From: Polytrichum commune | Taxonomy: Eukaryota; Streptophyta; Polytrichopsida; Polytrichales; Polytrichaceae | Length of the DNA: 64,000 nt | Assembly: GCA_950295325.1 (NCBI GenBank) | Contig: OX485803.1 | Location: 41,369,554 to 41,433,553 of the forward strand | Direction: 5' to 3' | Part shown: in pieces, positions 1,713 through 48,462 of the stretch | Numbering within the stretch: position 1 is the stretch's first letter | How the letters are laid out: each line of letters opens with the position of its first letter | The notes under the pieces: generated by a model | Seen by the model: only the letters and a program-made list of their open reading frames with translations | Told to the model about the DNA's origin: nothing | The model's database searches: none | Position numbers and translations under genes: made by a program

Positions 1713-3151
1713 TGTGAGGTAAAGTAGGCAACCCCCTTGGTTTCCAAGCCAAAGGGTTGAGTCGTGCTTACTTTTTGTTCACAAATACATTTTATAAGAT
1801 TCGAAAGTCTTTTTGAGAGAAAAGATAATAGTTAGCCTCTTAAGTATCCGATTAGTCCAACTTAAGCTTAGTTACCTTGGAATAGGCAACCTAGACCCTT
1901 TTAATGTAGCTAAACTACTAAAAATCAATGCAAAGAATACCAAATGCTAATAAAACTTCTAACTAATCAAAAAGGAATATGAAGAAAGAAGAAATATATG
2001 AGCTGCCTCACGGAAACCCTCATAACTTTTGGACAGAGTTTTAGTTTTACGCAAGATTAGGATGCAAGGATAGATAACTTCAAGTCCTACCTAGAAATAT
2101 AAAACTTGTAGAAAATGGCCCAACCAGCTAACCGGGGTGAAGCTTCAAAGTCAGCAGTGCTACATCAGGAGCTGTCTCACGGAAACACTTATAACTTCTA
2201 GACAGAATTTTAGATGTGCATGAAACTAATTTTGTTGGAAAGACAATTTTATTATCTATCTATGCATATAAAATAAATTGAAATCAGATTTATTGGTAAG
2301 ACGTGGCAAGCCTCTAAAGTACGCTGTCCTATATGATTCAAGTTGCTAACTAATTTTCATTCTATATAAACTAAGGTTGCTTCACTAACAAGTAAAGAAG
2401 AGGTGAGGAATGTGAATGTCATACAAAGAGGAAAATACTAATAAAACTATAAGAGAATATTTTATTTGAAAGATAGAAACACTTACTCCTTCTCAAGGAG
2501 TACAACCACTCCCCCTACTAACTACTAACTACTAACTACTAATAGAAGTCGGGGACACCTAAGTTGGCGAGATAGATACTAAGCGTCGAGAAGGTTGAGG
2601 CTCTAAGGGCCCGAGACCGATGAAGTGGAATAGTGGTAATGCTTGATGGAGTTTCGACGCCTCTTAAATAGGTGGTCGAGGTAGACACTCCGTGGTATTC
2701 CGTCTTGCCACGTCTACCCTCGCATTGGATCCGTTTAGGCTTTGTTGATCTTTCGCATTGGATCCGCTTAGATCCATTTTGACTTAGTAGTGCCCAAAAA
2801 CACTTGTCAACTTGGATCTTCTCTCGTCGAAGCGAATCGGCTTGGTCAAACGTGCATCCATCTAGTCCACGTTGTTTTGCTCCACTCCTTTAACCCGTTG
2901 TCGCGTAGTCACTTTGGATTTAGCCCTTAGCTAAGTCAATCTTAGCCTTACCAACCACTTAAATCTTGCCCTAGCTAAGTCAATCCTCACATAGTCCTAT
3001 AATATTCCGTTAATGCTTGTCCTATTAGGATTTACTTACTAGGCTAGTTTCTAACTCCCAACTTACCTAACCGACCTCATATTTACTATCTAAAGTCTAT
3101 TACCACTTATATTAGGTTAATTCGATAAAGGAATCAAAATAAACCTTCACA
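1713..3151 (-). repeat. 5' long terminal repeat (about 1.44 kb)
   Basis: The boundaries are TGTGAGGT at 1713 and CCTTCACA ending at 3151 on the plus strand, giving TG...CA ends with inverted TGTGA/TCACA termini. The PBS lies three bases beyond the 1713 end, as expected for a 5' LTR read on the minus strand. A short CTAACTA tandem run is at about 2517-2545. No ORF of note is present. The partner LTR and matching target duplication (expected to copy the bases from 3152 on) are outside the window. Confidence 0.75.
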
Positions 3152-5084
3152 CTCTAATATTAAAGGCTTGCTTGAACACCTTCCAGTGATTCCACTTCAC
3201 GTCGCCGTCGACGTCGAAGATTTGGTATTGAGGTGCCAGTGCGCTCAATTCCCTCATTGTTGCTGTCTTCAGCTTTCGATGCTCGCACCACTCCTTGATG
3301 GAGTACGTCCCGGGCTTGTGCTTGGGTCTCTTCAAAAATATTTTTGGATAGGGAAGTTTTCTTCCCTCTGTTTTCATTAGAGCGTGCACGGCGCATCGCT
3401 TCAACTCCGATTCTGTCAGCCCTTGGAGGGGTCTGAAGAACTCCCTGAGCAGCGGGGGGCACTCGAAGTTCTCAACGGCATTGTACTTCTCCTCCGTGTC
3501 GGGGTTGGTTAAATCTCCCGACGTGTGGGAGTCAAAAAACTGGGTCCATAAATCCCAGGTGTCTGTTGTACAGCATATGAGCCTGAGCTCACCTTTCAAC
3601 TCCAGCACCGACTTGGTTGAAGTAGACTTCATGTCGATGGAGGAGAATTTGTCCACCATAGCGTCGCAGAACGCCTGCATATTAAAATGGATGTCAGTCA
3701 AGAGTAAAATACGAACGCACGTTCGTAAAATGCAAACAAGAAAGGCAATATTGAGCTGATGTTTACGAACGCACCTTCGTAAACTTACCTTCCACTGTGG
3801 AGAAGGTTTCTTGGCGTTCTCCCTCTCCTTAGGGGGGCTACCGTGTGCCACCCAGACGTCTCTTGCAGCAACAATATTCGCAGCCCATGACGCCTCAAAA
3901 GCTTTCGTCTTGTTTCCGCTATTCAAATACGTTGATATTTTGCGGAGCTTCTCCCAGTCGTCTGACCACACCAGAAACGACTTCCAATAGCGCAAGTCGC
4001 CCTTCAGCTCGTGCTGGAAGGCGTCGTCATTCAGAACGATCTTAGCAGCCTCCAAGCTGTGCTGTCCGTCGATGATCCAGAAATCTCCGTTGAGGATTCG
4101 TGGCCAATCCCTCTCCGTGGGACGGGTAGTGAAGCCCTTTGGCATCACACAAACTGTTTGCCTGTCCCACTTGACGTTGTTGTAGAGGTTATTCAACTGC
4201 CACTTCACACCCCCGGTCTCCCGTGACCTCACTACCCACTTGTTTGGAGATTTTTCACATTTGAAGCAGTCGACGTTGAATGTGAAAAATCGACCCATTG
4301 GCCAGCAGTCCTTCGAGTAACTGTTAAAATCTCGAAGGATGCGCGTGGCCTTCGCACCGTCCGGTACCTCTCCTTTCTGCAAAGGAGCCGGCATGACTGG
4401 CGGGGAACTGACCTCTGCGCCCTCAGTTACGCCAGACTTCTCCATGTCGTCCCTCGTTCTCTTCGAAGGAGTGGAATGTCTGCTCGTAACTTCGGTCAAT
4501 CTGCTCGCAGTGGGAACAGGCCGCGGAGCACTTCTGGATCCGCCTGCACCGGATTGCGTTGGTTTCTTGGGACTCCTCTTCTTCTTGTTGGCCTCCAACA
4601 CAACACTGTTGGTCTTGGAGATGTTCAAGCACAAAGCGGTCAATTTCCTTGCTGTCCAATGTTGACTTAGGCTATATCTTGTGAAGAGTTTTGGCAGGTC
4701 GAAACGCTTTCCCTCCTCTTTAACATGCATCTGCGCGTAGTTGTGGGAGAAGGTGTATGCCAAGTAGTCCAGCAACACATTGACGTGGTCATTGTTGTAC
4801 TTCATGTTGAGGATTACGTAATTTCCCTGTGCCTCCACGGAATCTATCTCCCATGTTGCCATCTGCACCCACTGCTCTGGTTCATCGTTGTTGGTATTGA
4901 GCTGGTAGACGAAGCGCAGGACGAATGTTCCATCCTCTAACATCTCTGGAAGCGCCGTCCACTCTTTCATGAAGTCCTCCTGTGCGACATAATTGTCATT
5001 CCCATTGTCGTCTGTCACTGACTCTGGGACACTCTCCAACTTCTGTCCGAACATCTCTATCGCGCTTCTGTTAGGGATGGCCAT
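3147..5084 (-). CDS. Gene A: protein with a ParB/sulfiredoxin-like DGQHS motif, 3' end truncated by the LTR
   Basis: Spliced as exon 1 (5084-3789) and exon 2 (3674-3147), it gives about 607 residues. I chose the ATG at 5084 because TTTTGCAG, a splice acceptor, directly precedes it; the frame stays open upstream only with a TTG start and through palindromic intron-like DNA. Visible parts are an N-terminal acidic/aromatic region (1-155) of unknown type, a basic NLS-like patch (KKKRSPKK, about 165) in a Ser/Pro-rich linker, a Cys pair (DCFKCEK, about 270), and FWIIDGQHSLEAAK (about 335-349). This last resembles the phosphate-binding motif of ParB/Srx-fold proteins (DGQHR in some families, GERR in ParB). 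A helical region follows with SWAANIVAARDVW. Function is inferred: DNA binding or nucleotide-dependent activity at the nearby palindromes. The stop codon lies in the LTR, so the native C-terminus is lost. Confidence 0.6.
   Translation of the reverse strand: MAIPNRSAIEMFGQKLESVPESVTDDNGNDNYVAQEDFMKEWTALPEMLEDGTFVLRFVYQLNTNNDEPEQWVQMATWEIDSVEAQGNYVILNMKYNNDHVNVLLDYLAYTFSHNYAQMHVKEEGKRFDLPKLFTRYSLSQHWTARKLTALCLNISKTNSVVLEANKKKRSPKKPTQSGAGGSRSAPRPVPTASRLTEVTSRHSTPSKRTRDDMEKSGVTEGAEVSSPPVMPAPLQKGEVPDGAKATRILRDFNSYSKDCWPMGRFFTFNVDCFKCEKSPNKWVVRSRETGGVKWQLNNLYNNVKWDRQTVCVMPKGFTTRPTERDWPRILNGDFWIIDGQHSLEAAKIVLNDDAFQHELKGDLRYWKSFLVWSDDWEKLRKISTYLNSGNKTKAFEASWAANIVAARDVWVAHGSPPKERENAKKPSPQWKVSLRRCVRKHQLNIAFLVCILRTCVRILLLTDIHFNMQAFCDAMVDKFSSIDMKSTSTKSVLELKGELRLICCTTDTWDLWTQFFDSHTSGDLTNPDTEEKYNAVENFECPPLLREFFRPLQGLTESELKRCAVHALMKTEGRKLPYPKIFLKRPKHKPGTYSIKEWCEHRKLKTATMRELSALAPQYQIFDVDGDVKWNHWKVFKQAFNIRV
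3675..3788 (-). other. Inferred 114-bp intron of gene A carrying two palindromes
   Basis: On the minus strand the donor reads AAG|GTAAGT and the acceptor ATATGCAG|GCG. The length is a multiple of three with no stop, so the frame reads through it. The encoded stretch (VSLRRCVRKHQ...) is unlike its surroundings, and it contains palindrome cores at 3711-3726 and 3765-3780. Palindromes are absent from all other coding parts, which supports its being an intron. Confidence 0.7.
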
Positions 5085-5900
5085 CTGCAAAACAACATAG
5101 GTAGTCAGGATCGTATTTACGAGCGAGCGTTCGTATTTAGCAGACAAAGTTCTACAATTTTCAAATATTTTGAACAATAGTTGTTGAGATATTTACGAAC
5201 GTACGTTCGTAAATATGTTCTGTTTGAGAGGCTGTTCTTTTGGCTTTAGATGTTTGCGTGTTTTAAATACCAATGTGTTTATATTATTTTGTTCTATTGT
5301 GACTTATACTGATTTATATCTTCAATTTGTTCAACATGTGTTTACGAACGCACGTTCGTAAATCTTTTGACGGGCACAAGGCAGTCATTTACGAACGCTC
5401 GTTCGTATAATGAGGTATGGGCAGGGATTATGTGCTTACGAACGTGCGTTCGTAAATACTCAGACTATTATGTATTCCTTGTTTACGAACGTGCGTTCGT
5501 AAAATTTTAGGGGTTTAGGGGTTTAGGGGTGGGTGTTTACGAACGCGCGTTCGTAAACACATGAAAAGAGGATGGGTTGCGTGTTTACGAACGTGCGTTC
5601 GTAAACATATGGACTGGGAGGGGTCACAACAGCTCTGGTTTGCAGGTTGTGTTCACATTTACGAACGCTCGTTCGTAAATGTGAACTTCTTGAGAGCGTT
5701 CTGTCCGTACATGTACTTATACATATATGGATATGTATACGTATACACTTCAGCTGTGAAGAATGCTTGCGTTCGTGCCTGCAACACTGGATCAGAACCA
5801 GGATACTAAAACCAAATCAGTGCAAAATTCATAAAGCATACACAACATGCCAGATCTCATGCTAAAGAAGTTGACAATACAAACAAAACCCATGGAATTC
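5085..5900 (-). promoter_or_regulatory. Upstream region of gene A with nine palindromic sites
   Basis: Cores of the form ACGAACG-NN-CGTTCGT, usually extended by TTT and AAA, start at 5119 (one mismatch), 5195, 5344, 5391, 5438, 5485, 5539, 5587 and 5661. Four consecutive sites are exactly 47 bp apart (5344 to 5485). The central two bases vary (TG, CG, CT, CA, TA), while the arms are conserved. This suggests a dimeric DNA-binding protein with operator-like or centromere-like sites. The part nearest the ATG looks like a 5' intron ending in TTTTGCAG. Confidence 0.75.
5506..5530 (+). repeat. Short telomere-like TTTAGGGG repeat
   Basis: Three copies of TTTAGGGG lie between two palindromes upstream of gene A. 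It is one G longer than the plant telomere unit TTTAGGG. Confidence 0.8.
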
Positions 5901-6500
5901 AACAATGCAGAAATTCAGAATGTTTGGGAAGCGAGTTTAGAAGGATTACTTCACTCACATTGCAATGTGCTTGACCTTGTTTCTTCTTGCTGAAAATTTT
6001 GGAACACTCCTTGTATGCAATTGAATGAGACCTAAACCCTAGCAACTACTCATGTGCACTGAAATTGCAATCTTGCAACCATCAAGCTTCCTTCTTCCAA
6101 GCTTGCAACTATCAAGCTCACAAAAACAACCACTAAAACACAGCTTGCAACTCTGAAGCCTACAAACTTCAAGCTGTCACCGAGCAAGCTGTCTTCTCCG
6201 AACTTGCAACTATGAAGCTCACAAAAACAACAAAAAAAAGAAAGCTTGCAACCTGCACAAGCTCACAAGCTCACAAGCTCTCTACTCCTGATGCGCACAA
6301 CTCTGAAGCTCTCTAATCAGATTCGTTCCAAACTAAAGAGAAATATGCGACTCCTAAGATGCGAAAAATTAAAACACATAAACTAAAGCATTCTAAATTT
6401 CGCCAGAGCTTCGCTCCTCCTCTCTCTGCTGGGAATGAGAATGAGGAGGAGGGGCGCGGGGAGGTAGCCGGCACCGCTAGGGTTTCCCTGCGGCTGCCAT
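5901..6500. repeat. Non-coding region with degenerate GCTTGCAAC repeats
   Basis: From about 6060 to 6300 the words CTTGCAACTATCAAGCTC, CACAAAAACAAC and variants recur every 30-50 bp. The rest has no visible gene. Read on the minus strand, GCTAGGGTTT near 6050 resembles plant 5' leader sequence, so this could hold the distant promoter or leader of gene A. That is speculative. Confidence 0.4.
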
Positions 6501-6534
6501 GTGGCATCCCTCCACTGGACCGCGCTTAACATGG

Positions 6535-6715
6535 ATGGGATGGGAAGGGATGAGCATGGGAGATGGGAAGGGATGAGGAGAGGGGGAGGGGTGGGGATGG
6601 GGAGGGGAGATGGGTGGGGATGGGAGGGTGTGAGGGGGATGGGGGGAGGGGACATGGGTGGGGATGGGATGGGATGGGTAGATATGGGTAGATGAAGGGG
6701 GGTAGGGGCAATGGT
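6535..6715 (+). repeat. Purine-rich GGGATGG low-complexity tract
   Basis: About 180 bp of GGGATGGG, GGGGAGGG and related words with almost no pyrimidines other than T. Many runs of three or more G could form G-quadruplexes. Proline-rich frames on the other strand are artefacts of this composition. Confidence 0.85.
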
Positions 6716-7129
6716 GGTTTTTCACAAGGTCCCTAACATGTCTAGGGACATGTTCATTAAAAAAAATCATTTCCAGTGGACGGGTTCTTAGAAAATGAAC
6801 CGGTTTTTGGACATTTCAAATTTATTTTGGACGGGTTCTAAAAATAATGTTTTTATAATTTTTGTCTCAAAAACATAAATGGTATAAATATCATTATGTC
6901 ATATATGACATGTGAATATAAGCATAATGCAATCAAAGCACTAATACCCAATCAAAATATCAAATTGAAGTGCATGATTCACCTGCATACATTAATTCAT
7001 CAACCACAAAATTTAGAACCTTTTTAACATAATGTCAAAGATTATAATTGAAGGTACACTTAGCAATTGAATAAGAATCATTATATATGAATATGATCAA
7101 AAAATTTAAAATAAATACCTACTTACCCT

Positions 7130-7333
7130 TCAAAGAAGTGGATGAATTCTCCTATCCTTCATGTTTCTCCAAACAAGCATCACTGCATTCCAATTTATGT
7201 TTTCAACTGGAATATTTGCACATGAAATGCGCATCAAAGCTTCTAAAGTTTCTAACTTCAAACTAGTACGTAGATGATTTTTGATTAGGTTTTGTTTAGG
7301 AAAACCCCTCTCACATATTGCAGTGCATGACAA
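7130..7333 (-). pseudogene. hAT transposase C-terminal (dimerisation) fragment
   Basis: The 67-residue frame reads CERGFPKQNLIKNHLRTSL, then LETLEALMRISC and MLVWRN. The pattern ERGFS-x-QN-x-IK-x3-R-x3-L-x-x-E-x-LD-x-LMRI is the conserved C-terminal region of hAT-family transposases and related ZMYM-like proteins. Only this last part is visible: no BED zinc finger and no catalytic domain in frame nearby, so it is a remnant or a final exon. Confidence 0.65.
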
Positions 7334-7700
7334 AAAAGGTAGGTTGAATCTCCTCGACCGCGAAGCCTACCAGTTCTTGTTCCAAAAAAAAAAATCAAAT
7401 CCTTCACCCAAAACCTCATAATCCCTCATGCCCAAAAGATATAGAAAGAATGTGTGTAAGAGATACCTAACTAACTCATATTTGTTAATGGGAAGAGCTT
7501 CAATACCTGCTCGATGGGAAGAGCTTCAAAACTCAAATGGAAAAAATTGGGGGGGGGGGGCAATGTCGTGGAGGGAATGCTGGTGGTGGCAGCTGAAATT
7601 AGCAAAAAGACATAGTATTGATGGCATTGAAGCAAGATCCTATTGTTTCCAAGTGCAACCAATCACATGCCAACATCTTTCGGTTTATCTTTATTAATTG

Positions 7701-7893
7701 GTTTTTCTCTTTAACCTTTTCATGGACGGGTTGGTTTAGAAATTCCCTGTTTTGGGACGGGTTGTTTTTTCTTTAACCTTTCCATGGACGGGTTGGTTTA
7801 GAAATTACCTGTTTTGGGACGGGTCGTTTTTTCTTTAACCTTTCCATGGACGGGTTGGTTTAGAAATAATTACCGGTTTTGGGACGGGTTGCA
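7701..7893 (+). repeat. Three tandem copies of a 64-bp repeat
   Basis: Each unit contains TTTCTTTAACCTTTCCATGG, ACGGGTTGGTTTAGAAAT and GTTTTGGGACGGGTTG. The third is slightly longer. Related GGACGGGTT words occur at 6776-6840, so this is the subterminal repeat block of the candidate hAT element. Confidence 0.85.
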
Positions 7894-7957
7894 ATTTTTT
7901 TTGCCTTTCAATTCAAGGTTCTTGGACGTGGACGGGCAAAACCTTTGTGAAAAATCA

Positions 7958-9232
7958 GCCTTCGGTGGGGGGGTTTAAAAAAGAACAACTATACAAAATG
8001 TACAAGTAACACTTGTACAACTAAAACCCTAAACCATGAACATTTATAGTATTAACACTAATTGTTTTTAAAAATAGGACCCTAAGGTTTAATACAAAAA
8101 AAGCATAAACGATAGTATATATAATTCAACTTAAGTATTAATTGAATGAAACATTCTACAATATGTAACACTTATAACGACTTGAATGTATAAGTAATGA
8201 GTTCACATTACATTCATGATTTGCAAACCCTATATGTAATGGATGCGTCTATCACATTAACTTCAATAACTTAGTAAACATGCTTGAATTTTGTTTATCG
8301 TCATTCATTTGAGGACATTTTAGATTGAACTTGTGCATTGCAGCCACGTGGTCGAATACACTAAACCCTAAACCCTAAACACTATCACCAACCCTAAACT
8401 CTACATCCCTGCATCTTTGTATCTTACATGGTAGTCTTGTATGTGGCCATGTTGTGATCTATTGACATGTCAAAATGATCTACCGATGTTCGATGGATTG
8501 GAAATTGCTTTATTCGATTCATATCAATCGTAATAATTGAGAATCATGCCGATTGTCATTTGGAGATTCTAAATTAATTGAATTGAGACAAAAATTTGGT
8601 TTATGTGATTAATAAAACTTGAAACTTAAGAGTTTTGATGAAATAATAACTTAATAGTTATTATACAATTTGTTCACACAATCCATACTTAATATTATTA
8701 TAACTTGCATGTCTTAGGCCCTTAATTCATGCGTCAATGATTTTCTGTTCATGGGTCCATGAGTCCCACTCCCACCTTATTGAGTGATATAAATTTAGTT
8801 TCTATATTTAGTTTCTTTTATATATCAAGGTTAAGAAGAGTTATGGATGGTATTTCCATTGAATTGATTCAAGTTCCATTAATTCTCGGTATGTTCCCTT
8901 CCTTTGGGGTCTATTTCTCATTTCATGTGCAAATATTTTCATGTAACTATGTTTCATAATTTCGTTCCCTTCAATGCCTTTATGTCTAATATAAGGTGTA
9001 TCCAATTTGGAAACTATACGTATGGAAGTTTTAGTTTGTAATTAGAAGTCCATATTTGAAATTTAAAGTGCGTTCTTAAATAGTCTCAAAATCAACTAAA
9101 TGACTCCAATTACCAAATATACCATTATTGTATTAGATACGAATTGTTAATTAACTTGGACTTCACACCTTGGTTGCAAATCATTTAATCTTCTATGTCA
9201 AAATTCATAATATTTAAATATCATGAAACATA

Positions 9233-9266
<34 letters not shown>

Positions 9267-9400
9267 CATTTGGTGGTTCAGACCTTGGTTACATCTAAGG
9301 TGTGCGACCGATTTACATTTTTTTCCAATATAATGTGCGTGCATGCAATACATGTTGCATACAAAATGTTATTTATATAATTTGTCATGGCGGGAATGGC
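7958..9400. other. Non-coding AT-rich stretch
   Basis: No gene recognised. It contains three CTAAACC(CT) telomere-like units at about 8361-8382 and a (TA)n microsatellite at about 9240-9266. Short open frames here show no family features. Confidence 0.6.
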
Positions 9401-9650
9401 ATATTGGTAGGTCTAGGTAGGGGGCGGGAATCCGCTTTTTAAAGAGCATCCAAGAGATTTTGAACCACCGGGGGGAGGTACTTAAAGCTTTTCCCCCCAC
9501 GGGAGAGCTCTTTTCTGCGGCTGACGGGAGGTGTGCGCTCTAGAGAGTCGTCGGAGCGCGCTCAAGCCACCCTCCTCTTCGCCAACCGTATTCCTCACAA
9601 GTACAGGACATAGCATATCCCGCATATACCGCCGCAAATACCGGATACTT
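9401..9650. other. GC-richer segment before the palindrome array
   Basis: This 250 bp is clearly more GC-rich than its flanks and includes a small hairpin (GGGGGGAGG ... TTTTCCCCCC near 9470-9500). It might be an element end or promoter upstream of gene B. No matching inverted copy was found elsewhere in the window. Confidence 0.3.
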
Positions 9651-10596
9651 ACGAACGCGCGTTCGTAAGTATGAGGTCCCATCACTAGCACAGTTGGATC
9701 GGACGGAATGATGTGGGTTTACGAACGTGCGTTCGTAACTACCAAAGTATACCTGAGTCGACGTTGTGACATATGTATATCAATCATTTGCAATGCGAAT
9801 GGTGGTTCATTTACGAACGTGCGTTCGTAAATGTGGCATCTACGCTTTTATGTATGTACAATTATAAATATAATGGTTGTTCATTTACGAACGTGCGTTC
9901 GTAAGTACGCCATCTATGATTTCCTACTGAATACATTCAGATGGGGGTTGTTGTGGTTTTACGAACGCGCGTTCGTAAGTATGAGGTCCCATCAGTAGCA
10001 CAGTTGGATCAAACGCAATGTTGTGGGTTTACGAACGTGCGTTCGTAACTACCAAAGTATACATGAGTCGACGTTGTGACACATGTATATCAATCATTTG
10101 CAATGCGAATGGTGGTTCATTTACGAACGTGCGTTTGTAAATGTGGCATCTACGTTTTTATGTATGTGCAATTATAAATATAATGGTTGTTCATTTACGA
10201 ACGTGCGTTCGTAAGTACGCCATCTATGATTTCCTAGTTTATACATTCAGATTGGGGTTGCTGTGGTTTTACGAACGCGCGTTCGTAAATATGAGGTCCC
10301 ATCAGTAGCACAGTTGGATCGGACGCAATGTTTTGGGTTTACGAACGTGCGTTCGTAACTACCAAAGTATACCAGAGTCGACGTTGTGACACATGTATAT
10401 CAATCATTTGCAATGCGAATGGTGGTTCATTTACGAACGTGCGTTTGTAAATGTGGCATCTACGCTTTTATGTATGTGCAATTATAAATATAATGGTTGT
10501 TCATTTACGAACGTGCGTTCGTAAGTACGCCATCTATGATTTCCTGGTGTACACCTGCAGATAGTGATTTCTGTGGTTTTACGAACGTGCGTTCGT
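9651..10596 (+). repeat. Three tandem 310-bp units, each with four palindromes
   Basis: Palindrome cores start at 9651, 9961, 10271 and 10581, exactly 310 bp apart. Within each unit, further cores follow at +70, +162 and +236. Intervening sequence is nearly identical between units (for example TATGAGGTCCCATCA and GGTGGTTCATTTACG). Some cores have one mismatch (CGTTTGT at 10123 and 10433). Confidence 0.93.
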
Positions 10597-11053
10597 AAAC
10601 ATACTATCTGTTTTGTCCCGATATACTCTTCGAAATTCGGGATAGTTGTGGTTTACAAATTTTAGTCGTTAATACAACATGCGAGTTCTGTACTGGTTTC
10701 CAGAAAGAACTCCTCGTTTATAAACCTTTATACCCAAACTCATTCATCCTATGCTATACGAACGTACGTTCGTATAAAAAACTTGTACGTTCTGCTCATG
10801 CAGGTCGATGGTCTGTAATTAACGAACGCACTTTCGTAAATTCCATCAGCAATCAATATGATAGCACTTTGAAAGGCTTTCTAAGTTATTGACTTCCACA
10901 CATAGGCACATTCACTATTGCAGTCGTATATGAACGGACGTTGGTATTTAGAGCTTGACTGATTTGACATGCTGCGTTGAATGTCGTCCATGTTGGCTGT
11001 CATTCTTTAGTTTACGTTTGGGTCTCCTGGTGCCTCTGGTTTTTGTAGGTGGG
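10597..11053 (+). promoter_or_regulatory. Upstream/leader region of gene B with further palindromes
   Basis: Cores lie at 10758-10773 (centre TA), 10822-10837 (one mismatch) and a decayed one at about 10930-10945. The sequence TTTTTGTAG just before the ATG at 11054 looks like a splice acceptor, so a 5'UTR intron is likely, mirroring gene A. Confidence 0.6.
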
Positions 11054-14000
11054 ATGGCGATGCATGTGGATGGTAGTTCTCTGGAATTGTCAACAGACAT
11101 GTCGTCCTCCGTTCGTGAATGTGAAATTTCATCCTCATCTGCGGGTAGTTCTGACGACACAAACGTGGAGGGTGTGTCATTGCGTACATCCTCTCATGAT
11201 TCTTTTCAAGTGCACGACAGTTCTCTACATTTCGGTGTGGACGACGATGACATTCCTTTGTGTGCAGGATATGGTAGGGAGAAATGGGTGGGCCTTGATG
11301 TGGTTCTACTTAATGATCTAGGTGTCCCGGTGGCAAATGGCATATGTAGAAACTCCGATCCCCGTGAATGTGTTGATGCCAATCCCCTTGGTTTCCATGA
11401 TGTTGGGGTGTGCATCTTGAATTCTTTGCTTCCGCTTGAGGTCCCTGTGACTTGGAGGTTTTCATTGCGCCGATGGCCCCTTCGTCGGGTTCTCCATGAA
11501 GAAGTAAGCTTGTGGGATCATGGGCGACGGCATGAGCAAATTCAATCAACCTTGGTTTCCAACACTCGTCCTCGCAAAGGCCTCCGTAGATATGATTCTA
11601 GCCGCGCGCCTCCTGATGATAAAGAGCGTCGACGGGATCGCATAATAGGAGATGATTCTATCCGTCTCGTGTCCGCCAAGGACTGTTGTGCAAAAAGATG
11701 TTGCCAATTTTTCCCCCGCGAAAAAATTAAGTCTTTGCGTCAGGAGATGTGGCTTGCGGATTTTCGTATGAGGTCAGCAAAGAAACTCGAGGTCCATAGA
11801 AATTTGCACCTTGATGCGCATGGCCATAAGGTGGTGACCCTCGAGAATGTGGAAGTGTGTTGTACCGCATGGTATACCATTCATGCCGTCTCCAAGGCTG
11901 ACTTTTATAGGTTTAGAAAGTATTTATCATTGGGTCGTCGCTCTCGATTTCATCGCAATGCGGGTACAAAGAAACCTAGGGAGTCTACACTCCAAGCCTC
12001 CGCCACACTCTCCACGATCATAGTGCCATTGGCCGATGCAATGCCCCACAAGACGAGGACATTGTCGACATGGGAGAAAGTTGTTCAAATGGTGTTGCCC
12101 ACGGGCACAAAATGGAAGAACATATTAACGGATATCAACGAAGTGGGTCACATAGCGGGTTGTGGACCCATTTCTTTGTCCAAGTTGAGTGTCATTAAAA
12201 ACCAACAATTTGCAGAATATATTTTGAAGAGACCTGGTGACAAGTTCGCGAGGTGCACGACGTGTGAAAAATACAAAGGTCTTCGAGATGCCCACCCCAT
12301 AGGTACTGAGTCTCATACCAGGCATCAGGCAAAATATATTGAACATGTCAACAACCAAGAGGCTCACCGTCAAGATTACTACAAGAACCGTGCTCTGTCC
12401 ATAATGAGGCCTACAGAGGTTCTAACAATTATCCATGATAAAATGGACCACTCGAAGACCGCATGCCCTTGTTATGCTCGCAAAATAAAGGCCACGGATG
12501 GTCTTTTCAAGTTACCTGTATCTGTAACAGGTTTGTATGGCATAACAAACTTATATTCACCCTAAATCCTATTTTATTGGGTGGTTTTTCCAAATGTTCT
12601 ACTTTAGTGGTCTCTTCATTTTTTTTGGAAATTAACCCATCGTTTGTTTTTTATAGGTATGATTGCCCACGGCCATGGGGACGTAAAATATGCCCATTAT
12701 GGTTTGGATTTTTACCCTGGCGATGCTAACCACACGGTGGGTTCATTTACAAAACTCTTGCGCGATCTAAAGAAACCGCCGATACAGTCTTCACGTGCAT
12801 TGTTTGATGGGTGTAGAACGACACCCCTTTATGAGGCAGTGCTTGCGGGTAAGGAGGTTTGTATGTCGTCATTGCCGGAAGCATCCGGAGAGCCTATTTG
12901 TGCAAAACCTTTGCCTCCAACTCTCCACGTTCAACTTGATAATTGCGCAAAGGACAACAAATGTCGATACGTATTTTGTTTTTGGTCTTTGCTTGTGGCA
13001 AAAGGTATCTTCAAGGAGGTGTTTGTGTCTTTCTTGATGGTGGGACACACACATGACGACATTGATGCGTCCTTCGGACGGTGGAGCATGAAGTTGCATG
13101 AGGAAGATTTTCCAACCATACCACTTCTTATGAAATCGTATATGGATTTGGACCATATGCCGGTGATTCTGCACATGATCGAGGAAGTACCAGATTTTAA
13201 GGCCTTCATCAAGCCATACATGTTGAAAGGAGGGGACCGTTTGGTGGGACACACCAAAGCACAACAATTCCGATTCTATATAAGGGATGATGGTCTCCCG
13301 GCCATGCAATTCAAGCTTTTGTGCACATCTCCTAATTGGGGCCCGGATGATGGTATACTAGTATGGCGTCAAGACAATGATGGGAAATGTTTGCTCCCGG
13401 ATGGGGATCCAAAGCCTTGTAAACCCGACCCCATGAGGAATGGACCGGAGATCATCAAAGGCATATCCGGATTCATTGAATATTGGAAGGAGTTGTGTGA
13501 GGAGGACATCACTAGACGTGTTAGAGATACTCATGAACCATTGATTTCATATTGGGATCGCATTCGCTCGGCACTAGTGACAGTTGATGGCGACACCCGT
13601 ACGACTTTGACACAAGGGTTTTGGCCACAAAGTCGTTTGACGGTTGTCGAGTCCGACACCATGTTTTTCAGCAATGGAGACATTCGTGAAGAGTTCGCAA
13701 TGGATGAACATTACGTTGGCCCTGCCCGCAATCGACCGGCACCGTCGTTTCGTGTTGGGGTTGATTGCCACGAAGGTTATATGGTGCTCGTACGAGCTGG
13801 GGATGAAGAGCATCCCAAACCAATTTGGTTGGTGAAAGCATTGTCTTCGCCCAATTTTGTTCGAACTAGCCCCAACTTTCGTCAAATTGAGGTGGAATAT
13901 TGCCGTCCAAGCACTAAAGACCAGAACGTGCTTCGCACTTATTTAGGTTGGGACACCAAAAAGAATTTCAAGTGGACAATGGACTCAGCGTACAAACCGG

Positions 14001-14176
14001 TTTGGATAAACACGGATACTATACTTTGTGCTTGGAAGCCGCGCAAAGGTTCCAAAACAGAATCAATGACCATCCCCCAAAAACATATAGATTTTGCCAA
14101 GGACAATTTGGCACGTATTGCAGCTGCGGAAAATGACTCGGACAATGGATATGAAGCGGAAGATGGAGATGGGTAA
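11054..14176 (+). CDS. Gene B: DUF7869-like protein, possible DDE/RNase H-fold transposase
   Basis: Joining 11054-12530 and 12657-14176 gives about 998 residues. The ATG at 11054 is the first in frame and follows a splice acceptor; the frame extends upstream only from a TTG. The N-terminus is Ser/Asp-rich. A Cys-rich part (CCAKRCCQFF) is followed by FARCTTCEKYK and a helical segment. The core has IIHDKMDHSK (D462, D465), VQLDNCAKDNKCRYVF (D587) and VGHTHDDIDASFGRW (H623, H625, D626-D629). These three blocks are the signature of the DUF7869 family, as I know it. The spaced Asp residues suggest a metal-dependent RNase H-like catalytic core, as in DDE transposases, but this is inference. The C-terminus (DNLARIAAAENDSDNGYEAEDGDG) is acidic. 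The frame has no internal stops, so the gene may be intact. Confidence 0.75.
12531..12656 (+). other. Inferred 126-bp intron of gene B
   Basis: The donor is AACAG|GTTTGT and the acceptor TTTTTTATAG|GTATG. Splicing joins VSVTG to MIAHGHG in frame and removes the stop at 12563-12565. The intron is T-rich near the acceptor, as usual in plants. Confidence 0.85.
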
Positions 14177-14914
14177 ACATAACATACTAGGTGGGAGTTA
14201 ATGGCGAGAGGCATGTGAGCTTAGCAAGCTTGGTTTTTAATAGACTTAGTAGACTTGTCACATTCCATTGTGGCATATGTTTGGGATGTGTCATCCAACT
14301 TTATAAGACCCTTACTTTTGGGATGGGCACCCTAAACTCTAAAATGACAAAAACAATTTGTTTTTAAAAGTCCATTGTTATTTTTTACATGGACTACACG
14401 TTTTCATTGTAATTGAGACTTTCTATTTTTAGTAATGATAATATTCTGCGCATGCGAATTTATAAATCATCATGTTCTTGATGTTCCCAATATTCTATAT
14501 GCCCACAATATTGGCATCCCAAACTATGGGCATATTTAATTTTGAGACTTTCAAAAGTCTCCGATTAACGAATATAGTGTTAACACCTAAGACTTTTACA
14601 AAGTCAAGGATGTTATCAAAGGTTTTGGATTGCTCCAAAAAAAACACACCAAGAGATCTAGAGAGTCTAAACTTCTAACCTATATATTTGCCAATAAGCA
14701 TATGGGCATTTCAACATTCACAACTCTTTTGGTCAGACTACAACCCTTCCACTCATTACTTCCTGATATCTCGAATCTTTGACCTATTCATACTTACTCA
14801 ATGAAACTTTTCCCATCCACTTGAGGTTTTATTTCCACTTGATTTCTAATTAGGCTAGGGGAAAAAAATAAAAATAAAAATAACACCACACTTGTACAAG
14901 AATAGGTGCCTATA
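14177..14914. other. Region downstream of gene B, no gene seen
   Basis: AT-rich sequence, probably including the 3'UTR of gene B. No terminal inverted repeat matching other parts of the window was found that would mark the right end of an element. Confidence 0.5.
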
Positions 14915-40978: not shown

Positions 40979-41900
40979 TTCTAGTTCTTGATCAATGCCA
41001 TCCCACTAAAATATTTGATTGTAAACTCTTACATTAGTCTATCTAGCAATTGTCTTCTTTAAAAATAGACAACTATATGCCTAGGAGATCCTAAATATAT
41101 ATATATGGAAAGTGGTCATACTTACCATGATGGGAATGTAACAAGGATGTAGATGAATGGAGCAAAATAACCATAGTCACAACCGTGACCCACATCTCTA
41201 ACCCATGATAAAAATAGGATTTGGGAAAATTTACCATAGGTATGACTCCAATATAAATCCCTAACCCTGAATGGAGCTTCCTTTTTTACTATTCATGCAA
41301 GTGTGAGGTGGGGTTGGTTTCGTGTATACTCATTGGAGTAGTAGCTTTGTGTTAAAAGTGAGAGATATTAGTTCTTTGACAGGAGCAAAGTGGACAACTA
41401 CAATTGTAGTCTTTCATAAATGGGAGGAGAGACAGCACAACGGATGGACCGCTAAGGAGCTCTGCGTAGTGTGGCGAGAGGAAGGGAGATGGACCGTAGG
41501 AACAAGCCGCAGAGAGTTGAATCACAAAAATTGTCTACCATATGAATAAGGATCTTTGCAAATGATATGTAGCATGATGTAACTAGTGGTGTGCTGGGAC
41601 ACCGATCAAACAAGCAATGGTCAGGTAAGCATGTTGCAATGCTCTCCTGAATGAAGCAGTTGTAGATCCAGATCTAGATCTGCTGGGTTTTTCTTCCCCA
41701 CATTGCATTTAGGGTGGATAACACAAAAATGTTAGATGAGTGTTGGCATAAAGGGAAAAAAGAAGAAAAAGATGAAGAATAGGCTGGGCTATTCTTCCCC
41801 ACCATTGCTTGAATGTAAACTAGGCCACCATGCTACACACTCATCACAAAGCTACAAACTTCTAGGCTACTCCTTGACCACATCCAACTTCCTCTAGTCC
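40978..41900. other. Region before the LINE, boundary unclear
   Basis: No gene. TCTTCCCCAC(C)ATTGC(A/T)T occurs twice (about 41690 and 41793). The LINE 5' end may lie here, but no target duplication or defined start was found. Confidence 0.4.
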
Positions 41901-42133
41901 ACACAGCAAAGCACATCAAATGACGCCACCATCAATACACAGGCTTGAATACTCTCACACTACTCTTGCAAATGTTTTTATTTCCCAAAGTTGCACATAT
42001 CATATGCTCATACATTTATGCTATAACCCTACTCTTCTTACCAAAACCTCTATACTATCAATGTACTATATAAATCTAGTCTCTGGTACACCCAGAAAGC
42101 AAAGGTATGATGTGAAGCACTGCAGTCCGCACG

Positions 42134-42877
42134 ATGAAAAACACCAGAAGTCCCCCAACCTGCACCACCCACCAAGCAACAAGGGACCGCATCAGCAAAT
42201 ACACACCAAGCATGCTGCCCAACAGTACGCAACCCAACCCACAACCCAACGAATCTGGCAAAAACAAGCAGAAGAAGGGAATCGACCCAGCAACAAAGGC
42301 CGCCCCCGAAAGCAGCGTCCCCCTTACCGAGACCCAACAAACAGCTCCCAGAGGGCACACCAACACAGCTGCAGCCAAACCAACAGCCCGGATCGACGCA
42401 GCCGCATCAAGAACATATCTCCTACAAAACAACGTGACCCCTGCAACAGAGCCGACAGTCGAAGGACATCAGCAAAATGCACCAAGCACATCGCCACCAA
42501 GAGAGAAACCTGCTGCAACAACTCCCGCACCAATTCCAGCAACACCCCTAACGCCAGGAGCGCCAGCACCAAGAAAAACAACAAAATAAAAAATTGCAGG
42601 TACAACACCGAATCACAGAGAGATGGTTGTAACAACACCGACAGCGACACTGACACCTGCGCCAACGGCATCAGAAAGAAGAGAAGCAACACCTGCAACA
42701 CCCGCGACATCGACTGCACCAACATCTGCAACAGCCCCAACACCGAAAACAGAAAAATTGCCGAACTCACAGTCGATACCAAGAAAAATGGGAGCCCGAA
42801 CAACACCAACCCCCCTGCCTACAGACACGAAGCGGACAACACCAACGAAACCTCCAACAACAAATCAGAAGCAATAA
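42134..42877 (+). other. Thr/Pro/Ala-rich open region in the LINE 5' part
   Basis: One frame is open over about 248 codons with a single TAA at 42587-42589, rich in Thr, Pro and Ala (for example TPATPATSTAPTSATAPTP). It might be an extra ORF of the element or only a by-product of the lack of T on this strand. A different frame is also open from 41920 straight into ORF1, showing how weak openness is as evidence here. A duplicated CACAAGGAGGAGGA motif lies at about 43333-43369. Confidence 0.25.
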
Positions 42878-44286
42878 CCAACACACCCCCTGCCCCAAAA
42901 CGAAGACAAGGTAAAAATCAGATTAGGAGCATAGGATATCTAGGCAGAAATTTAAAGCAAATAGCAAAAGAGCCGACACCTAGAGAACCACAGAGAGGAA
43001 AAACTTGTCATCAAAACCCTAACAGAGGCAGCAACATGATGATGATGTCCACAAAACTCCATAACAGAAATCATCGACCAAAGGTAGTCTCAAACTACCA
43101 GTATAAAGGCAAGACGCAAATCCCTTCTCTCACACACACCTACTTACTACTACATCATTTCTCTCTCTTCTCACCCCTAGATGCACTTAGAACAAGCTTC
43201 CTGTCACCTTGCTCAACTCACTACTTCCCTCCCAGCCTAGCAGAACGGAGTTGGTTATACACACAGAATAGAAGCTACTTAGAATTCTACAGACAAAGGG
43301 CCCTGAAGCACATGTGGAAGGAGACCACACACACAAGGAGGAGGATTGCATACACAAGGAGGAGGACCGCCAGCCGAGGAAGGAGCGCACACAACATCGA
43401 CGGACAGACTGGGCACCGGACGCCGAGGAGCAGCGAGAGAGCCCTGGAGGCGCCGAGACAACTGTTGCGGAGCAGGAGCGGACAGGAGGCACCAAGACAG
43501 CCGAGTTGGGACGGGAGCGAGGTTACTCAACGGTTCTACACCAACGGACCTACACCCAACGGTTTCACACCATTACGCAACGACTCTGCAACTGCACCCA
43601 AAGGCCCCCCACAAGCAGAGACCAGAACCGAACTGGTCCAACAAAGACCGTTCAGACCATACCAGGTTCACTCCAAAATAAGTTCTCTAATCAGTACATA
43701 CGTTGATAACAGTCATAAGCTACATAGGCTTCCCAGAATTAGCATAAAGTCTCCATACCTTACTTTGTTACAAATCACGTGGTTGCTTATTTTGCAAGCA
43801 TACACCATAGTCTCACAAACTAAAATGAATAGGGATGAGGCCCAAAAATGCTTGCATTTTCGTAAAAGTAATAGAGTCAACATAAATAGCTTGTATGAAT
43901 GCTCCACACCAAAAACCCTCTTCTATCTCACTAGCAATCTAGGTAATACACACCTTAATTGCATACAACCACTTAGCACACATAAACAAAACACTTCTAC
44001 TAAAAAACATGCTTGGACACATTACCATAAAAAACCCACTTACTACATGCTCCCAATATATACCACCCACCACAACAAATGCCTCTATATGTATGGTCAT
44101 GTATATCAATCTCTTTATCATGTCATTAACACCTATAACAACACAACACACCTCTCCTTCTCAAAAGTCATACTTCACTCGGCCCCACAAATTAAATTGT
44201 GGGGAGAAGGAGACCTTGAGGCCAAAAGGAGAAACTCTATGTCAAAAAAAACTAGAAGCTTAACACAAATTTTTTACTTTTTCAGA

Positions 44287-45909
44287 ATGTCTCAACGCGC
44301 CACAAACCCAAGCTCATCTCAGAGATACAAAGAGAAACTCCTAGCCCTAGAAAATGACCATGATGTAGAAATGTTTGTTACACAAAAACGCTCTTCTACC
44401 TCTCAAGTTACCACAAACCAAAAAAAGGCTAAAGGCAAATCAAACTCCGGTTTGAAACGTCCTCCCTTTTGGCTTGGTTACCAAGCAATGAATTGGACAA
44501 ATAGAGGGAAAGGACTCCCCATGGATAGCCATGCCCCGGTAGCCACTCTAGTAAAAAACGGAATGAGAGAGAAAGAGGCTAGAGAATGTCAATCCACTTT
44601 GTCTTCCTTCCCCTTTGTCATTCAAGAGGAATGGCCAAATTCAAGAGAGGACGGTAAGGAAGGCCAACATTTTAACCTCACACAAATCCCATCGGACGTT
44701 GAGGTTGATAAGTTTGGTTTTTCATTAGATTACCAAATTGCAATCATTTTTGAAATGGGGGAAAATGAGTGGGAAAAAGATACGGTGATGACATTGGTAG
44801 AAACTAGGCTCAAAGAGATGAATATTGAGCTAGGAGATATAATAGGTGAACCCATAGCACTCATGTGTTACCACAAGTCCACAAAGTGGAGTGGGGTAAT
44901 AAAACTTCACTTGAAAACCCCCGAAATTGACGGGGTGGGGCTCCTTCAAGGACTCCGCCCATTCATTCTCAAACTAGATGAGGGTAAATTCCAAAGAGGG
45001 AAAACATGCAAAACTTACGACTCCCTAGCCTTGAATAACCTCTTGTCGGTCAAGATTACAAGTGAGGGGCTAGCATCCAAGGAGTGGTACGAAATGTTTG
45101 AAAAAATTGTGGAAGAGAGTTTTACAAGAGGAACGGAATACGAAATAACCAACATCCAAAAAAAGAAGGAAAACCTCTTCGCATGGGTAGTAGCCTCTTC
45201 ACCGGAACAAGCACAACGGATGAAGGAGCATCAAATCACCTACAACAACGAAATTTTGGACGGGAAATTAGCCGATCGGACACTCGCATCCAAGGACGAC
45301 ATTGCAAGGAAGAACGCCCTCATCCTCATCGCCAAAAATCTCAACAAGACCAAAAGCGTTGAAGAAATCGAGAAGAGCATTGAAGAGCATATGGGACCTA
45401 AAAACACGGTCAACTTCTTCTTCAAGCGCGATGACAAAAACGGTAAGCATCTAGGCTCTTGTAACATTCAATGCCTAAATGCTATGGTATACAAGAAATT
45501 CGGCAAAAAAACAGTAAAACTACTCAGTAAATATGTAGAGTTTACCCCCCACCCTAGGAGCCTTGACGGAGCTAATGCACCTAGTGCACTTGAACTCACC
45601 AGGCTAGGGTTTAGTGATGTGAACACTGCCCTGGCAAACACCATTGAAACACTCGAGAATATCCCCGCAAAAGCAAACCTACACAAAGACTTAATGAAAG
45701 AGATAGTCGGCATAAGAGAGGAAATTACCACAATGAAGGAAGAGCTACGAAGTGAGCAACAACAAGTTGCAGAAAAAGCCGTGGAAAAATCAACATCTAC
45801 CCTCTTCACACAAATGACACTCCTCAAGCGACAACTTGCTACCACCATGCAAGCACTAGAAATGGCTAGCTCCTCGGCCATCGAAGGCAACATGGACACG
45901 ACAAACTAG
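44287..45909 (+). CDS. LINE ORF1 protein (putative RNA-binding/chaperone)
   Basis: From the ATG at 44287 to the TAG at 45909 there are 540 residues. The frame is open far upstream, but composition changes to normal mixed-residue protein here (MSQRATNPSSSQRYKEKL), so I chose this start. The N-terminus is basic and polar (KKAKGKSNSGLKRP). The middle (about 110-440) has alternating hydrophobic blocks that could hold one or two RRM-like folds (IGEPIALMCY; NALILIAKNLNKTKSVEEIE), an inference only. The C-terminus (about 450-530) is Leu/Glu/Lys/Gln-rich and looks like a coiled coil (MKEELRSEQQQVAEKAVEK). No CCHC knuckle is visible. By position it corresponds to LINE ORF1 proteins, which bind element RNA. 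The frame is intact. Confidence 0.75.
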   Translation: MSQRATNPSSSQRYKEKLLALENDHDVEMFVTQKRSSTSQVTTNQKKAKGKSNSGLKRPPFWLGYQAMNWTNRGKGLPMDSHAPVATLVKNGMREKEARECQSTLSSFPFVIQEEWPNSREDGKEGQHFNLTQIPSDVEVDKFGFSLDYQIAIIFEMGENEWEKDTVMTLVETRLKEMNIELGDIIGEPIALMCYHKSTKWSGVIKLHLKTPEIDGVGLLQGLRPFILKLDEGKFQRGKTCKTYDSLALNNLLSVKITSEGLASKEWYEMFEKIVEESFTRGTEYEITNIQKKKENLFAWVVASSPEQAQRMKEHQITYNNEILDGKLADRTLASKDDIARKNALILIAKNLNKTKSVEEIEKSIEEHMGPKNTVNFFFKRDDKNGKHLGSCNIQCLNAMVYKKFGKKTVKLLSKYVEFTPHPRSLDGANAPSALELTRLGFSDVNTALANTIETLENIPAKANLHKDLMKEIVGIREEITTMKEELRSEQQQVAEKAVEKSTSTLFTQMTLLKRQLATTMQALEMASSSAIEGNMDTTN

Positions 45910-48417: not shown

Positions 48418-48420
48418 CTC

Positions 48421-48462
48421 CTACTACTCTGTGGAGACATCGAAACTAACCCGGGACCAATG
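48421..48462 (+). other. 2A-like ribosome-skipping sequence at the head of ORF2
   Basis: In frame with ORF2, the codons give LLLCGDIETNPGP followed by MPN. This matches the 2A consensus D-(V/I)-E-x-N-P-G-P with the usual hydrophobic/Cys-Gly lead. 2A makes ribosomes release the upstream chain between the last Gly and Pro, so ORF2 would begin at the Pro at 48457. The frame is open upstream for about 188 codons (from 47896) without an ATG, so how translation reaches it is unclear. Confidence 0.88.

What the first reader, a model, noticed from the sequence alone, without database searches (positions are those of the whole stretch)
3147..14176. Two divergent genes sharing about 27 palindromic sites: candidate new transposon or selfish system
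Seen: gene A (DGQHS motif) and gene B (DUF7869-like) both follow a splice acceptor just before their ATG, both have a palindrome array upstream, and the same 16-bp core occurs nowhere else in the window. Known: ParB-fold proteins act with palindromic sites, and CACTA-type transposons pair a small DNA-binding protein with a transposase acting on subterminal repeats. Inferred: gene A binds the palindromes and gene B may be the DNA-processing enzyme. Limits: no terminal inverted repeats, and a decayed hAT element sits between the genes.
Basis: partly seen in the sequence, partly recalled or inferred. Interest (0 to 1): 0.88.

Follow-up and report, generated by a model that had tools for sequence, protein, structure and literature searches.

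The report
Plant transposon with self-marking palindrome arrays
The two genes and their repeated palindromes belong to a large, recently multiplied plant jumping gene that appears to tag its own DNA with a private, protein-read palindrome, probably to escape the host's silencing; a sister family uses the same layout with a different palindrome.

Summary
In detail: 27 palindromes (chance 0.67) lie upstream of both genes and in gene A's intron, none in exons. The window copy is a truncated transposon. A complete relative is 16.7 kb, with imperfect TIRs (AACACTATATTC...); target duplications are 4 bp (9 of 10 elements perfect). It carries divergent gene A (orphan, DGQHS motif) and gene B (DUF7869, probable transposase). 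No TIR pair is visible in the window because the A-side 5 kb is gone.

New finding: a sister family (A 34-38% identical, B about 65%) has the same introns and array positions but an unrelated palindrome, TTGGGTCGNNCGACCCAA. The genome holds 4,680 sites of type 1 and 10,011 of type 2, with 1,166 close type1-type1 pairs and no type1-type2 pair. In the listed hits A1 pairs only with B1 (22 divergent pairs) and A2 only with B2 (20). Three gene-less 9.4-kb derivatives read in full keep 23-33 sites, and their end has many near-identical copies.

Most likely, A reads its family's palindrome and counteracts silencing in cis, like the unrelated VANC/VANDAL system of Arabidopsis. Binding and anti-silencing are inferred, not shown. 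The ParB fold and the hAT relic were not confirmed.

The parts
3152..14581 (.). Truncated copy of the transposon (family 1a); the breakpoint at 3152 removes the A-side 5.2 kb including one terminal repeat
   Evidence: homology to nine near-identical copies stops at 3152; B-side end at 14581 shared by three copies
3789..5084 (-). gene A exon 1 (432 codons), orphan protein with DGQHS motif
   Evidence: open frame; GT-AG intron follows (read; sister copy); 65 scored loci genome-wide
3675..3788 (-). gene A intron 1, contains two palindromes
   Evidence: GTAAGT...TGCAG borders read in the window and a sister copy; same intron position with the other palindrome in family 2
3152..3674 (-). gene A exon 2, truncated at its 3' side
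3711..3780 (+). 2 palindromic sites inside intron 1
5119..5676 (+). array of 9 palindromic sites upstream of gene A
9651..10945 (+). array of 16 palindromic sites upstream of gene B, partly on three 310-bp repeat units at 94-95% identity
11054..12530 (+). gene B exon 1
   Evidence: open frame; splice borders read from sequence
12657..14176 (+). gene B exon 2 with DUF7869 domain (probable transposase)
   Evidence: Pfam PF25273 5.5e-41; 83 scored copies
14554..14581 (-). B-side terminal inverted repeat, reads AACACTATATTCGTTAATCGGAGACTTT inward

Best explanation
A DNA transposon family whose gene B (DUF7869) is the transposase acting on the terminal inverted repeats and making 4-bp target duplications. 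Its gene A is a sequence-specific DNA-binding protein that reads a family-private palindrome placed in arrays upstream of A and B and in A's introns. Binding at these non-coding arrays most likely keeps the element's own DNA, and that of gene-less copies carrying the arrays, open against host silencing, so that A and B are transcribed and the ends stay accessible. Shown here: the transposon anatomy, the A-B pairing, the switch of A and palindrome together between two families, and retention of arrays in gene-less copies. Inferred: A binds the palindrome (about 0.85 likely); the effect is anti-silencing rather than another role in cis (about 0.5).
For: TIRs and 4-bp TSDs (9 of 10 elements perfect). 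22 of 65 listed A loci have a listed B within 20 kb, against a random mean of 0.46 and maximum of 4; of the 24 such pairs 22 are divergent. 30 of 30 family-1 A loci (the window copy included) carry 5-13 exact type-1 sites and no type-2 site. The one family-2 A gene read has 18 type-2 sites and no type-1 site, in the upstream array and in both introns at the same positions. Genome-wide: 4,680 type-1 18-mers and 10,011 type-2 18-mers, reversed-pattern controls 0; type1-type1 pairs 15-45 bp apart 1,166, type1-type2 pairs 0. Divergent A1-B1 pairs 22, A2-B2 20, cross pairs 0. A diverges more than B between families: A 34-38%, B about 64-65% over exon 2. Gene-less 9.4-kb elements keep 33, 32 and 23 exact sites (3 of 3 read); their 846-bp end segment has 38 near-full-length matches at 96% or more, the query included (40 scored of 935 candidates). 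Nearest exact sites are 1.6-5.3 kb from the ends in 7 of 7 elements. CpGs in palindromes show fewer TG/CA changes than other non-coding CpGs: 14 of 443 against 22 of 284. The anatomy resembles VANC targets in Arabidopsis: tandem motif repeats in introns of VANC and VANB and upstream of the transposase gene, differing between related elements (PMC5735166 sections 8-9).
Against: No binding, methylation or expression data. Gene A has no recognised domain in Pfam, NCBIfam or PDB, and its AlphaFold model failed (pLDDT 33.9). The CpG signal is mixed. Palindrome CpGs decay no slower than coding CpGs (39 of 990, P=0.55), and alignment cells are not independent. Spacer CpG observed/expected is 0.36-0.38 in two A-side arrays against 0.78-1.17 in six others; in the four gene-less arrays the control dinucleotide GpC is raised as well (1.17-1.56), so base make-up alone may explain those. 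One TIR-bounded 3.6-kb copy (L055) has no exact site of either type, although its deletion junction was not shared by the 39 other scored matches (best 40 of 1,390 candidates). The co-switching rests on two families and one family-2 A gene read.
Confidence: 0.55

Rival explanations
1. Gene A is an accessory transposition protein (like TnpA of CACTA elements): it binds the palindromes to fold the element and help gene B bring the ends together.
For: Gene-less elements keep the arrays and their end has many near-identical copies, as expected if the sites are needed in cis; the one palindrome-free copy looks like a singleton deletion among the matches scored.
Against: Nearest exact sites lie 1.6-5.3 kb from either end in 7 of 7 elements and sit upstream of genes and in introns rather than subterminally.
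Confidence: 0.25
2. Gene A is an ordinary transcriptional autoregulator (activator or repressor) of A and B, with no chromatin role; arrays in gene-less elements are inherited passengers.
For: Arrays sit directly upstream of both genes and in A's introns.
Against: Passenger arrays should decay, but the three gene-less elements read hold 23-33 exact sites in two arrays with tandem repeats.
Confidence: 0.14
3. The palindromes act as RNA hairpins or as sites for a host factor, and gene A is unrelated to them.
For: Sites occur in introns.
Against: Palindrome type switches with gene A in the upstream array and both introns, and no type1-type2 neighbours occur; the two central bases vary while the halves are nearly fixed, which suits a dimeric DNA reader.
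Confidence: 0.04
4. Gene A and its sites are a ParB-parS-like partition or spreading system.
For: DGQHS motif resembles ParB/DGQHR motifs (recalled); palindromic arrays.
Against: No ParB match in Pfam or NCBIfam at E<=10, none in PDB by profile; no ParA-like gene was recognised; the element is chromosomal with TSDs.
Confidence: 0.02

Closest known systems
VANC / VANDAL21-VANDAL6 anti-silencing system, Arabidopsis (PMC5735166, PMC10398659)
   Same: transposon with a gene paired with a motif that forms dense tandem arrays in non-coding parts of the element, including introns of the protein's own gene and upstream of the transposase gene; the motif differs between related elements; the transposase is more conserved than the reader protein
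   Different: here the motif is a palindrome of about 22 bp (there a 9-base motif arrayed in one orientation); gene A has no DUF1985/DUF287 match; the probable transposase is DUF7869 with 4-bp TSDs; binding and anti-silencing not tested
CACTA (En/Spm) transposons with TnpA
   Same: DNA transposon with a second, DNA-binding protein and repeated target motifs (TnpA from recall, including its recalled effect on Spm methylation); the TIR here contains the letters CACTA
   Different: element starts AACACTA and the TSD is 4 bp, where EnSpm has CAC..GTG ends and 3 bp (PMC12730594 passage); motif arrays are not subterminal
Sola superfamily DNA transposons (Sola1 listed for Physcomitrella in PMC9033089 Table 1)
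   Same: 4-bp TSD (reported for Sola2 in PMC3627910), TIRs, listed for a moss
   Different: transposase homology could not be compared here; no palindrome-reader gene is mentioned in the passages read

Membership tests
DNA transposon with TIR (class II) | terminal inverted repeats at both ends | tested here: met
   AACACTATATTC... at both ends of copies read; 26 of the first 29 bases match in the C1 copy; TIR 13-mer 776+807 hits against 3+10 for the reversed control
DNA transposon with TIR (class II) | target-site duplication of fixed length | tested here: met
   4 bp in 9 of 10 elements read, the tenth 3 of 4 bases
DNA transposon with TIR (class II) | transposase with RNase H-like DDE/D fold | tested here: inconclusive
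   DUF7869 hit; no significant PDB match (best E 0.31); single-sequence model failed, pLDDT 37.6
VANDAL (MULE) elements with VANC | VANC protein with DUF1985/DUF287 | tested here: not met
   gene A of both families gave only weak unrelated Pfam hits or none at E<=10
VANDAL (MULE) elements with VANC | dense motif arrays in non-coding regions, type specific to the family | tested here: met
VANDAL (MULE) elements with VANC | protein causes loss of DNA methylation on its targets | not testable with these tools
   no methylation data; only an indirect, mixed CpG test
CACTA / TnpA | 3-bp TSD and ends beginning CAC(TA) | tested here: not met
   4-bp TSD, ends AACACTA; EnSpm features from PMC12730594 passage
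CACTA / TnpA | subterminal motif arrays (recalled) | tested here: not met
   nearest exact site 1,561 bp or more from either end in 7 of 7 elements; one site with a mismatch at 1,040 bp in the C1 copy
Sola superfamily | 4-bp TSD | tested here: met
Sola superfamily | Sola-type transposase homology | not tested
   I had no Sola transposase sequence to compare
ParB / DGQHR proteins | ParB/Srx domain detectable by profile or fold | tested here: inconclusive
   no ParB match in Pfam, NCBIfam or PDB, but the model failed, so the fold remains untested

The most novel reading that the evidence does not exclude
A further, independently evolved class of transposon-encoded, sequence-specific anti-silencing systems, built on an orphan palindrome reader and unrelated to VANC. 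Here reader and palindrome have been exchanged together at the promoter and intron arrays between sister families, which lets such families multiply side by side in one plant genome and carry gene-less copies along.
Probability: 0.45. Interest if true: 0.86.

Novelty: new variant of a known kind. Interest (0 to 1): 0.74.

Why it matters
The sequence-specific anti-silencing system of transposons that my searches returned is VANC/VANDAL in Arabidopsis (maize Spm TnpA is a recalled second case). A convergent system from unrelated parts, in a very expanded and recently multiplied family, would suggest that a private DNA address plus a matching reader is a general route for transposons to escape silencing with little host damage. 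It gives a clean test case: two readers, two palindromes, no mixed neighbours. If A acts as inferred, A and its palindrome would also be a compact pair for targeted epigenome studies in plants.

Tried and rejected
Rejected or unresolved. (1) A ParB fold for A: no ParB match by profile or in PDB; the AlphaFold2 single-sequence model had pLDDT 33.9 and was not searched further. PHROGs and PADLOC were not searched. (3) Relatives in viral contigs: none for B exon 2 or A exon 2; the A exon-1 alignment was too variable to search. The prokaryote contig, phage and plasmid collections were not searched. (4) 'B plus TIR suffices' from the 3.6-kb L055 element: dropped, because its B is shortened and split and its deletion junction was not seen in the other matches scored. 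(5) hAT relic: no Pfam support. (6) Subterminal TnpA model: exact sites are not subterminal. (7) CpG observed/expected as proof of hypomethylation: mixed, with a raised GpC control in the gene-less arrays. (8) Organism identity: not determined; a land plant is inferred from genome form (408 Mb, seven chromosome-size contigs) and plant-type telomere-like repeats, possibly a moss (recall only). (9) A possible methyltransferase-like C-terminus of A was only an impression from a glycine-rich end and has no tool support.
Full report
What is in the window. The palindrome ACGAACGNNCGTTCGT occurs 27 times (up to 3 mismatches; 21 exact), all between 3711 and 10945; shuffles give 0.67 on average and at most 3. 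The sites form three clusters: two in an intron of gene A, nine upstream of A, sixteen upstream of B. Although 42% of the stretch is coding, 0 of 27 sites lie in an exon. The sixteen-site array rides partly on three 310-bp repeats at 94-95% identity. Gene B has Pfam DUF7869 at 5.5e-41; gene A reaches no Pfam cut-off.

It is a transposon, and this copy is truncated. The window's own assembly (408 Mb, 64 contigs) is searchable. Gene A has 65 scored loci of 1,689 first-look candidates and gene B 83 of 1,868. Nine near-identical relatives stop aligning to the window at one point, 3152, where gene A is cut. Two relatives share sharp ends; the copy on C1 (49675985-49692660), read in full, is 16,676 bp. 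Both ends start AACACTATATTC (26 of the first 29 bases match between ends), and the flanking 4-bp duplications are TCAT and CCCT. Two copies of a second subfamily have the same ends with AATG and AGGA. Six further elements give CATA, CTTA, CTTA/CTTG, TTGT, TCTT and ATGT. That is 9 of 10 perfect 4-bp duplications. The TIR 13-mer occurs 776+807 times against 3+10 for its reversed control, and a longer TIR pattern 354+371 against 0. In the first 100 listed ends, 24 inward-facing neighbours lie within 20 kb against 3 outward-facing; 17 of those 24 are 14.4-19.1 kb long.

A and B travel together. Of 65 A loci, 22 have a listed B within 20 kb (500 random placements: mean 0.46, maximum 4). Of the 24 such pairs 22 are divergent, and all but one of the 22 are 8.0-10.1 kb apart start to start. 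The lists hold only the best-scoring copies, so the remaining A loci are not evidence of B loss.

A sister family with another palindrome. The 18.1-kb element C1:610757-628840 has no listed type-1 site but carries arrays of TTGGGTCGNNCGACCCAA. Its gene A is 34% identical over exon 1 and 38% over exon 2 (DGQHS kept), with both introns at the same places. Type-2 sites sit in the upstream array (11), intron 1 (4) and intron 2 (3). In the first family GT-AG introns 1 and 2 hold type-1 sites at the same places. Type 2 occurs 10,011 times and type 1 4,680 times as 18-mers, reversed controls 0. Pairs of exact sites 15-45 bp apart: type1-type1 1,166, type1-type2 none on either strand; type2-type2 was not counted. 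All 30 family-1 A loci (L009-L038, the window copy included) have 5-13 exact type-1 and no type-2 sites. A second B, about 64-65% identical to the window's over exon 2 (L047, L055), belongs to family 2: in L047 it has six type-2 sites 0.4-0.8 kb upstream of its matched exon. In the position lists, A1 lies within 15 kb of B1 23 times (22 divergent), A2 of B2 24 times (20 divergent), A1 of B2 0 and A2 of B1 0. So reader and palindrome changed together at the array positions compared, while the presumed transposase changed less. This rests on two families and one family-2 A gene read.

Gene-less copies keep the arrays. Three elements of 9.4-9.5 kb read in full (C1:639070, C1:50554854, C1:31473167) have TIRs and TSDs but no detectable A or B; they hold 33, 32 and 23 exact type-1 sites in two arrays. 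The 846-bp end segment of one has 38 near-full-length matches at 96% identity or more, the query included, eleven shown as 100% after rounding (40 scored of 935 candidates), which points to recent multiplication; apart from these three, those copies were not read. A fourth (C1:16407022-16414079, 7.1 kb) matches the same end and has listed type-1 pairs inside it. Two elements that lost A but keep B have 6 and 4 exact sites. One 3.6-kb element has no exact site; the other 39 scored matches all stop at its deletion junction (best 40 of 1,390 candidates), so its deletion looks private. I found no palindrome-free form that multiplied, in this small sample.

Where the sites lie. In six complete elements no exact site is closer than 1,561 bp to either end, and in the family-2 element the listed sites start 5.3 and 2.7 kb from the ends. 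One site with a mismatch lies at 1,040 in the C1 copy. This argues against a subterminal, TnpA-like role.

Mechanism. Shown: transposon anatomy, A-B pairing, switch of A and palindrome together, arrays kept in gene-less copies. Inferred: A binds the palindrome; the variable central two bases and near-fixed symmetric halves suit a dimer. Inferred with less certainty: the binding counteracts silencing. The closest model is VANC of Arabidopsis VANDAL elements, which binds arrays of a short motif in non-coding parts of the element. Those tandem repeats occur in introns of VANC21 and VANB21 and upstream of VANA21, and motif and protein differ between related elements (PMC5735166, abstract and sections 8-9 read; PMC10398659, abstract and introduction read). 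An indirect test is mixed. Palindrome CpGs show fewer TG/CA changes than other non-coding CpGs (14 of 443 against 22 of 284, P=0.0075 with non-independent cells) but not fewer than coding CpGs (39 of 990, P=0.55). Spacer CpG observed/expected is 0.78-1.17 in six arrays, 0.36-0.38 in two, and 0.47-0.55 in other non-coding DNA. The GpC control is ordinary (about 0.8) in the window-type arrays but raised (1.17-1.56) in the four gene-less arrays, so those four may reflect base make-up.

What it is not shown to be. A ParB fold was not supported by the searches made, and AlphaFold without relatives failed for both proteins. Where B belongs among known transposases is open. Sola is a candidate because of its 4-bp duplications (Sola2, PMC3627910, passages) and its listing for Physcomitrella (PMC9033089, Table 1 passage). 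No paper with 'DUF7869' is in the held library. Searches on new moss transposon superfamilies, ParB-like proteins in plant transposons and transposon anti-silencing were seen as listings, with passages of PMC12730594 and PMC4455052; none of the titles, abstract openings or passages seen describes this system. Subscription papers are not covered.

Activity. Fifteen listed family-2 A segments, the query included, are shown as 100% identical over 266 residues, and by my hand count about three quarters of the 144 scored have no stop inside the match (the best candidates are scored first). Family 2 has therefore multiplied recently. The window copy itself cannot be autonomous because part of gene A and one end are missing.

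Noticed in passing
L039:6665-7435 (C1:49677397-49678167), minus strand, inside the complete element: An ORF with an NLI-interacting-factor/SCP-type phosphatase domain (Pfam NIF 2.3e-16) lies between gene A and the A-side end; it may be a third gene or a captured host exon. It is missing from the truncated window copy.
   Followed up: partly
window 41878-55468: Chain of long + strand ORFs with strong base skew; of three ORFs scanned one (49258-50439) matches an endonuclease of reverse-transcriptase elements (Pfam Exo_endo_phos_2, 2.7e-07), so probably a LINE-like retrotransposon.
   Followed up: partly
window 8852-9121: A decayed inverted copy (75%) of the element's own A-side end lies inside the A-B intergenic region of family 1a, as if an old related element had inserted or two elements had fused.
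   Followed up: partly
C1:639070-648560 (L001, L008, L048, L049): In gene-less elements the arrays show tandem repeats (about 160-bp and 34-bp site spacings), giving up to 33 exact sites against 26 in the full element.
   Followed up: partly
window 3152: The breakpoint that truncates the element is not a TIR; what joined here was not identified.
   Followed up: no
C1:438281-478026 and C1:2154257-2159629: Further clusters of the second palindrome without a listed TIR pair around them; possibly other, more diverged element families.
   Followed up: no
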